This document shows positions 55,135 to 56,660 of a stretch of DNA of 64,000 nt, piece after piece. Under the pieces are notes generated by a model. The model saw only the letters and a program-made list of their open reading frames with translations. It had not been told where the DNA came from and ran no database searches. The translations under genes were made by a program, and so were the position numbers. The DNA is from Moniliella sp. 'wahieum' (Eukaryota; Basidiomycota; Moniliellomycetes; Moniliellales; Moniliellaceae): the NCBI GenBank assembly GCA_003971905.1, contig RSEE01000137.1, forward strand, positions 89,387-153,386, in the 5' to 3' direction. Position 1 is the stretch's first letter, and every line of letters starts with the position of its first letter.

Positions 55135-56576
55135 GCTCAGTGGCGTCGCTGGTGGCGGTTAGGGGCAGACGCTGCTCAATGTGGCGTTGGTGGTCCGGCG
55201 GGGCATGCAAGGAAGCGCCCTGGGTGGGTTGGCTACTGTTGGTGGGGGGGAGAGGAACGGGCGCAGCGCCACAGCCCCGCAGTCTAGGCAACCGATCCCA
55301 CATCCGTGCGAGCAACCCGCGGGGTTTCGGGTGCTGCTCGGATTGCCCCGGCACGCACAGATCAGTCACGTGAAGGCTGCCGCGTGTCACAACCCGGTTT
55401 TTATTGTCCGCTTGGCCCTCCCCTCGGCGTGGCCGAGGCCGGTATCCGCGCTTGCCGCTCTGCTGGCTCACCTGCATTTGCCAGCCGCATCAACCCCTGC
55501 ACCGCTAGCCGATCTGCCTTCTAGTGGCGTCCTGTCGGGCCTGCTCAGCTCGGTGATCGGCCACCTGCACACTTACGCGGCTTGCCCTACCGCCGCTAGA
55601 CGAGCAGGATCATTATTGTACTACGTTTCCATGTCCCTTGTGTCTTATCATTTCCACACGGAAGCTTTTCCTGCGGTGTGGGTCGATCCAGACGGATCGA
55701 ACCTGGTATCGGTTTTGTTTTCCTGGGATGAACAGATTGAAGGGGACCGTGTTTGTGTGTCGGAATCGTGGGCATCTCTGTTTTCATCGCCTTGCCCTCC
55801 TCGGGAGCGAGCGACAGTTTTTGTTGGGCCTCGGCCAGGATGCTGATTGGAACGATATGGGCCGGCGGTTACCGGCTCAGGCATAGTTAGTCACTGTACT
55901 GCCGAGCTCGCCTGCTCTCTGGTACTTCGCATTGAGAGAGTCGATGGGGCTCACGCCTAGTGAACGGTTGATGCTACGTCTGAATGGTATTGGTATGAGT
56001 GATAAAGGGGGTGAAGGAGTACCTCTGGGTGTGGGGTGAGAGTGGGGGTATGAATGGATGGGCATGGGCGAGGGGTCAACATGGTAGGTACTATATATGG
56101 ACTGTAGCTCTTTACTGTGGTGGACGGTGGGGACGAGGTATGTTAGTACCCAAGGAAGCTACGGATGGGGGCTGTGTGCATGCAAAAGGGAAGATGTCAG
56201 GGAGAACGTTCAGAGGAGAGTGGGGCCAAGTAGGGAAATATGGGGCATGTATTGGTCTGGCGTGGGGGGCGGGGGGCAGCCCCCCGTGCGGGGCGCAGGC
56301 AGCGGGGAATTACCACCTACTGGGTGCGTGCTCTCAGGGCACCGCCCTAGTGGTCAGTCTAAGTCTGTATTTTCAGGGATCAGTATGTCGGAAGAGAGTC
56401 AGTATATCTACAAGTCGGCATCCTACTACAGATGGAGGTGCCGCAGTAGAGACGCAAGAAGGGGATCAAATGGCAAATTCATTTCTTTTTTTCGCTCCGA
56501 AATTAGTGAGTAGGGTTGGATTTGAAAAGGTGCTTAAGCCCCCCTCTCTGAGGAGAGAGGGGGGAAAGAGGCACAC
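55135..56576. other. Spacer between the last gene and the broken 28S gene
   Basis: No gene was recognised. From about 55980 rightward the sequence becomes G-rich on the + strand with words such as GGAGTACCTCTG, GGTAGGTACTATATATGG and TTAGTACCC, in the same style as the intergenic spacer at 62.9-64 kb. Hairpin CGGGGGG/CCCCCCG with loop CAG lies at about 56269-56285. It could be spacer or insertion sequence fused to the 28S gene. Confidence 0.45.
56539..56564 (-). repeat. Perfect 11-bp hairpin next to the 28S break
   Basis: Stem CCCCCCTCTCT (56539-56549) with AGAGAGGGGGG (56554-56564), loop GAGG. In the direction of rRNA transcription it lies 13 nt after the last 28S base. Confidence 0.85.
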
Positions 56577-56660
56577 AGTAGATAGGACAGTGGGGGTCTC
56601 GTTAATCCATTCATGCGCGTCACGAATTAAATGACGAGGCATTTGGCTACCTTAAGAGAT

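What the first reader, a model, noticed from the sequence alone, without database searches (positions are those of the whole stretch)
56560..56660. 28S gene ends exactly at the R1 retrotransposon target position
Homology to 28S stops after CTATCTACT at 56577. This is 73 bases (74 if the missing C of CCC is restored) past the AAGG/TAGCC site used by R2 and I-PpoI. In arthropods R1 elements insert 74 bp downstream of R2, with a duplicated segment ending in CTATCTACT. A break at this exact base is unlikely by chance and suggests an R1-like insertion, an intron, or a rearrangement that uses the same nick. R1-type elements are not established in fungi. No reverse transcriptase is visible to the left, so any element would be truncated or lost.
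Basis: partly seen in the sequence, partly recalled or inferred. Interest (0 to 1): 0.75.

Follow-up and report, generated by a model that had tools for sequence, protein, structure and literature searches.

The report
Broken 28S gene near chromosome ends
In this fungus-like genome most readable ribosomal-RNA gene copies near contig ends lack nearly the last third of the 28S gene, cut at almost the same base, which looks like one old deletion copied from end to end rather than a mobile element sitting there.

Summary
The break is real: 28S homology stops at 56577, 73 nt past the R2 site (74 in intact copy L023). It is not a misjoin: of 39 readable places in the same assembly, 33 on 33 contigs stop at or within a few nt of this base and 6 continue as true 28S. 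The canonical array contig is masked, so intact copies are undercounted. The left flank is not a retrotransposon. It is the end of the same rDNA unit: a remnant of the 28S 3' terminus, a hairpin and, in 12 of 16 flanks searched, a decayed 5S. About 970 nt of 28S are missing. The class B consensus carries 24 nt matching 28S nt 847-870 (23/24, 0 of 2000 shuffles). Identity among copies falls from 95-99% to 53% at the join. A tree of the adjacent subtelomere fits one origin and spread. Why it sits at the R1 position is open. No PF14529 endonuclease was found; 16 PF03372 matches were not examined. A REL-type retroelement sits elsewhere in 28S, and a second 28S fragment starting at the recalled R1 nick lies further in. 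R1 insertion is not supported; a repaired cut there is possible.

The parts
56577..58882 (-). 28S rRNA gene, 5' part only, ending with CTATCTACT (R1 position) at 56577
   Evidence: cmscan LSU 56500-58882; junction checked against intact copies
56565..56576 (-). Remnant of the 28S 3' terminus fused to the R1 position (shorter than in the 31 class B copies)
   Evidence: alignment with intact tail CACCTCTGATT of L010 and L025
56539..56564 (-). Hairpin, 11-bp perfect stem and 4-nt loop, in the place where intact units have a hairpin after 28S (role as Pol I terminator or processing signal is inferred)
   Evidence: intact counterpart in L010 and L060
53819..56579 (-). Decayed rDNA spacer and subtelomeric sequence shared with C175 (91.7% over 2.8 kb)
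56645..56653 (-). R2/I-PpoI-type site AAGG/TAGCC, 73 nt before the break
58013..58036 (-). 28S nt 847-870, which the 24-nt filler in the class B consensus matches (no filler at the window's own junction)
59009..61052 (-). 5.8S (59009-59160) and 18S (59253-61052) of the same unit
61053..64000 (-). Intergenic spacer with internal repeats; the contig ends at 64000 (C137:153386)

Best explanation
The window ends in a subtelomeric rDNA array whose innermost unit is a relic. In an ancestor a break at or beside the R1 position of 28S was joined to the last ~27 nt of the same gene, with a 24-26 nt templated filler from 28S nt ~845-870. About 970 nt of 28S were lost and the hairpin after the gene was kept. 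Subtelomeric exchange copied this end to at least 33 places. The side toward the telomere (28S 5' part, ITS, 18S) stays homogenised with the arrays, while the chromosome side, no longer matching a functional unit, drifts; hence the identity cliff at the join. Class C (window, C175) is a descendant that lost the filler and 5S. Shown: anatomy, filler in the class B consensus, recurrence, cliff, hairpin retention. Inferred: single origin, direction of spread, break repair. Not resolved: whether a site-specific nuclease made the break or the position is coincidence.
For: 33 of 39 readable places share the stop, 6 run on into 28S. Flank homologous to hairpin, spacer and 5S of intact units. Class B consensus (31 copies): nt 1-24 match 28S nt 847-870 at 23/24 (0 of 2000 mononucleotide shuffles as good), nt 26-52 match the intact 28S tail at 22 of 27 columns, the latter not tested against shuffles. 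Cliff 95-99% to 53% in 13 of the 31 class B copies, those with enough rDNA side read. Class C flanks are nearer to class B (mean 0.64, 26 of 31 class B copies used) than to canonical units (0.45-0.49); no unrelated baseline was measured. Tree of the neighbouring subtelomeric gene, 19 sequences: the ten places labelled A and the four labelled B fall on opposite sides of a branch with support 1.00. The 5S-side spacer of a further unit lies outside the truncated junction on nine contigs: C10, C24, C30, C37, C39, C73, C98, C135, C136.
Against: Single origin is not proven. Class C keeps CTATCTACT (+14) while most of class B reads CTATCT (+11), which could mean two events. The tree is unrooted, 5 of its 19 places could not be classed, and two fetched loci (C136, C110) gave no long enough match and were left out. 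The event cannot be dated without relatives of this species. The position at the R1 site is unexplained if no nuclease was involved. The canonical array is masked, so the share of truncated copies in the genome is unknown.
Confidence: 0.72

Rival explanations
1. Abortive target-primed reverse transcription at the R1 nick. A retroelement protein cut 28S at the R1 position and inserted cDNA made from a read-through rDNA transcript (filler, 28S tail, hairpin, 5S, spacer). The insert would be bounded by the 5' junction at +11/+14 and by the inner 28S fragment that begins TGTCCC, i.e. an R1-like target duplication of 11-14 nt.
For: A second 28S fragment of about 70 nt beginning at TGTCCC (the recalled start of the R1 target duplication) lies 1.3-1.5 kb inward of the junction in class B copies C33, C73 and C21, in the same orientation. 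14-nt duplications, non-templated nucleotides and microhomology at 5' ends are described for R1 (PMC2718515 passages). The filler looks like a template jump. Matches to the REL-type element are many and one family sits in 28S.
Against: The same inner fragment lies 2.3-2.6 kb behind complete 28S genes in class A (C219, C53, C14), so it need not belong to the junction event. BLAST found it in only 2 of the 16 class B and C flanks searched. No element end, RT or poly-A was recognised between the two. The two junctions may have separate histories.
Confidence: 0.15
2. A true R1-clade (or other) retrotransposon was inserted at the R1 site and later lost, leaving the break.
For: Position matches the R1 5' junction (+14) in the window and C175.
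Against: No PF14529 match in the genome. What follows the break is rDNA tail and hairpin, not an element end. PMC5035012 never found R2 outside animals (passages); for R1 in fungi my paper searches listed no report. The 16 PF03372 matches were not examined.
Confidence: 0.06
3. The truncated units are working parts: boundary units kept because their hairpin stops Pol I or replication forks before they enter the chromosome.
For: 31 of 33 truncated copies keep a perfect stem of 8 bp or more, against at most 7 bp in 131 control windows of the same flanks, although the flanks outside the hairpin columns are only 46-69% identical. Stem letters differ between truncated and intact units while pairing is kept.
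Against: Inverted repeats of short units may persist through local mutation bias; no covariation test was run. No transcription data. The 5S in the same flanks is decayed (no 5S match in L024 or the window at gathering score; 71-83% identity in the 12 of 16 flanks where found).
Confidence: 0.15
4. Assembly misjoin at 56577.
For: rDNA is a classic place for misjoins; the window's 28S lacks a base near the junction.
Against: 33 places with diverged flanks share the junction.
Confidence: 0.02

Closest known systems
R1 non-LTR retrotransposons of arthropods (28S-specific)
   Same: Break at the same 28S base as the R1 5' junction (+14 in the window, +11 in most of class B); an inner 28S fragment starts where the R1 3' junction would be (recalled sequence)
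   Different: No element between; no PF14529 endonuclease found; flank is rDNA
Telomeric rDNA arrays of fungi (e.g. the rDNA telomere of Magnaporthe oryzae, PMC7367193, passages)
   Same: rDNA next to telomeres with truncated units; TTAGGG-type repeats directly on rDNA (C211, C199)
   Different: In M. oryzae the truncations are at the telomere side and variable. Here the inner edge is truncated, at one base, at dozens of places
R2/R9/NeSL-type REL retrotransposons in 28S genes
   Same: In this genome a REL-type element (my reading) sits in 28S near the sarcin-ricin loop; R9 uses another 28S site than R2 (PMC5035012 passages)
   Different: Different 28S site from the finding; about 250 nt of 28S repeated around it; in a fungus-like genome; clade not tested

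Membership tests
R1 retrotransposon insertion | 28S interrupted at the R1 position | tested here: met
   33 of 39 places, within a few nt
R1 retrotransposon insertion | Element with RT and APE-type endonuclease following the 5' junction | tested here: not met
   flank is 28S tail and hairpin; PF14529 0 matches; no RT match within 14 kb inward of any of the 33 junctions
R1 retrotransposon insertion | 14-nt target duplication with 28S resuming on the far side | tested here: inconclusive
   28S fragment starting TGTCCC found 1.3-1.5 kb inward in C33, C73 and C21, but also in class A behind complete 28S
Group I intron or other intron in 28S | 28S resumes precisely after the insert | tested here: not met
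   about 970 nt of 28S absent before the tail
Subtelomeric rDNA array edge (decayed innermost unit) | Lies between chromosome and rDNA units, near the contig end or telomere | tested here: met
   contig positions; telomere repeats at 6 of 18 loci examined that reach a contig end, two of the 18 masked there
Subtelomeric rDNA array edge (decayed innermost unit) | Unit escapes homogenisation on its chromosome side | tested here: met
   identity 95-99% versus 46-80% across the join, 13 of 31 class B copies

The most novel reading that the evidence does not exclude
A 28S-targeting retroelement protein of this fungus (REL type) cuts the R1 position and, by reverse transcribing rDNA transcripts there, created an rDNA-derived insert with R1-like junctions. 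It then became the standard inner cap of the subtelomeric rDNA arrays, kept for its hairpin.
Probability: 0.1. Interest if true: 0.75.

Novelty: new variant of a known kind. Interest (0 to 1): 0.42.

Why it matters
If right, one broken 28S unit has colonised the inner edge of rDNA arrays at most readable places (33 of 39) of a fungal genome, which makes spread by subtelomeric exchange and the edge of concerted evolution visible to the base. It also warns that 28S-based copy counts or markers from this group can come from relic units. The coincidence with the R1 position would turn into a test of site-specific cutting of 28S outside animals.

Tried and rejected
R1-clade element search: PF14529 gave nothing; PF03372 gave 16 places, not followed up. 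RT search: 71 places, none within 14 kb inward of a truncated junction. Flank ORFs of ten loci looked to me like chance frames in GC-rich DNA plus gene pieces; they were not run against a family library. The idea that the flank is an element 5' end was dropped once the intact unit L010 showed a hairpin of the same kind after 28S. The idea that the inner 28S fragment with zinc-finger frame is the 5' end of a live element could not be carried further: no RT or REL match was found directly behind it in the loci read. A protein search with the REL piece found nothing at E <= 0.001 among 2,164 candidates. Species identity: in the best 120 copper ATPase matches, those with a species name are all fungal but one plant record, best named Tilletiaria anomala 64%; not named further. 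Paper searches (listings only, plus passages of PMC7367193, PMC4640811, PMC2718515 and PMC5035012) listed no report of a fungal R1 or R2 element or of a truncated subtelomeric 28S like this. Loci L063, L064, L070 and L071 were fetched and not used; of L062 only the ORF table was read.

Full report
Observation. The minus-strand rDNA unit at the right end of the window runs 18S (61052-59253), 5.8S (59160-59009), 28S (from 58882). The 28S stops after CTATCTACT at 56577, 73 nt past the R2-type site; in the intact copy L023 the same stretch is 74 nt. The window is the end of contig C137 (153,386 bases) of a 69.5 Mb genome in 223 contigs. Among the best 120 matches of the copper ATPase in the window, those with a species name are fungal except one plant record, the best named one at 64% identity. 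The species is not known to me.

Recurrence. The 200 bases around the junction match 39 places over most or all of the 28S side, plus 8 weaker matches to flank pieces. I read all 39. Six (C219, C53, C33 outer unit, C2, C14, C201) run on into true 28S. Thirty-three stop at or within a few nt of the R1 position: the window and C175 as class C, and 31 as class B. C33 and C2 give identical matches up to about 9 kb, and the class B junctions of C41 and C89 are identical in the stretch printed, so places are not all independent. The canonical tandem array (C193, period about 10.1 kb) is masked over its rRNA genes, so intact copies are undercounted.

What follows the break. Comparison with intact units L010 and L060 shows that the flank starts with the end of the same gene. 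In the class B consensus nt 26-52 match the intact 28S tail at 22 of 27 columns; then comes a hairpin and, from about 340-460 nt in, a degenerate 5S in 12 of the 16 class B and C flanks searched. The mature 28S end is inferred from the hairpin position. About 970 nt of 28S are missing. Between the R1 position and the tail lie 24 nt matching 28S nt 847-870 at 23 of 24 in the consensus, with 0 of 2000 shuffles as good; single copies keep 16 to 23 of 24, in 30 of 31 class B copies. Class C lacks the filler and 5S, but its flank is nearer to class B (0.64) than to canonical units (0.45-0.49). So the flank is neither an element nor unrelated chromosome.

Cliff. In the 13 of 31 class B copies with enough rDNA side read, mean pairwise identity is 95-99% up to the R1 position, 53% in the next 40 columns and 46-80% further on, the highest values in the hairpin columns. 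This is expected if the telomere side is homogenised with the arrays and the chromosome side is not; it does not by itself show a nuclease.

Hairpin. A perfect stem of at least 8 bp is kept in 31 of 33 truncated copies (exceptions L038 and L048); the best stem in 131 control windows of the same flanks is 7 bp, mean 4.7. The stem differs in letters from that of intact units. This suggests a kept function, perhaps transcription termination, but repeat mutation bias is not excluded. No covariation test was run.

History. A tree of the neighbouring subtelomeric gene and its upstream part (19 sequences) puts the places labelled A (C219, C129, C201, C53, C3, C69, C2, C158, C14, C12) apart from those labelled B (C33, C73, C64, C21), with unclassed C62, C128 and C208 on the B side and C118 and C19 on the A side. 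C129, C3, C69, C158 and C12 were labelled A by the near-canonical spacer seen beside them, not by a 28S junction. C136 and C110 were fetched but gave no long enough match. This fits one truncation and spread; the tree is unrooted. On nine contigs (C10, C24, C30, C37, C39, C73, C98, C135, C136) the 5S-side spacer of a further unit lies outside the truncated junction.

The R1 coincidence. R1 insertions of the ancestral type have 14-nt target duplications (PMC2718515, passages); that the duplicated segment reads TGTCCCTATCTACT is recalled. The window and C175 keep this segment up to its last base (the window lacks one C), most of class B keeps 11 nt. A second 28S fragment, beginning TGTCCC and ending GCAAGAAG (about 70 nt), lies further in: 1.3-1.5 kb from the junction in class B C33, C73 and C21, 2.3-2.6 kb in class A C219, C53 and C14 behind a complete 28S. 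It is followed by a zinc-finger frame (my reading) related to the N-terminus of the REL element. Both R1-type ends are thus present in order, but class A shows they may have separate histories. No PF14529 was found. The C-terminal piece of the REL element has 136 matches at E <= 0.01, several per element in places, from 127 of 393 candidates scored.

A 28S-resident REL element. On C33, C2 and C158 an element with zinc knuckles (my reading), RT (PF00078; 25.4 bits for the C33 piece, below the 29.6 cut-off; 45.4 bits on C158) and an R2-like C-terminal region (my reading; no Pfam match) is inserted in 28S just past GAGAGGAACACCGG, with about 250 nt of 28S repeated on its far side, in a run of copies about 4.2 kb apart on C158. 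The frames on C33 and C158 are broken. PMC5035012 (passages) states that R2 was never found outside animals and names NeSL-clade families in planarian 28S genes, also in PMC4640811 (passages). Whether this element is R2, NeSL or another clade was not tested.

Verdict. Most likely this is one old internal deletion of 28S at the inner edge of subtelomeric arrays, copied among chromosome ends. Site-specific cutting as its cause is open.

Noticed in passing
L023:4790-8815, L028, L029 (C33, C2, C158; matches to its C-terminal piece also on C24, C30, C63, C69, C222): REL-type non-LTR retroelement (my reading) inside 28S near the sarcin-ricin loop, about 250 nt of 28S repeated around it, in a run of copies about 4.2 kb apart on C158; a 28S-resident element of this kind in a fungus-like genome
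   Followed up: partly
L010:1286-1320 and element 3' junctions in L023, L028, L029: The otherwise complete 28S of C219 carries ATGCACCCCCGGG where C33, C2 and C14 read GTTACCACAGGG; the same variant stands right after the element's 3' end, as if an element had been lost by recombination
   Followed up: partly
L010:3425-3500 and relatives listed: 28S fragment of about 70 nt from the R1 position, beside an intron-like GTAAGT...CACAG stretch (my reading) and a zinc-finger frame, repeated at many contig ends
   Followed up: partly
L011:1-60, L016:1-60, L028:1-40: TTAGGG-type repeats attached directly to 5.8S at the same base on C211 and C199, and directly to the retroelement on C158
   Followed up: no
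L018:6450-9400 (C80): On C80 the truncated unit's 28S match also stops on its other side, at window-equivalent 57976, with two reverse transcriptase matches about 2-3 kb further out: perhaps another insertion in 28S
   Followed up: no
window 61053-64000: Intergenic spacer made of diverged internal repeats (e.g. 63170-62555 against 63788-63233, 75%)
   Followed up: no
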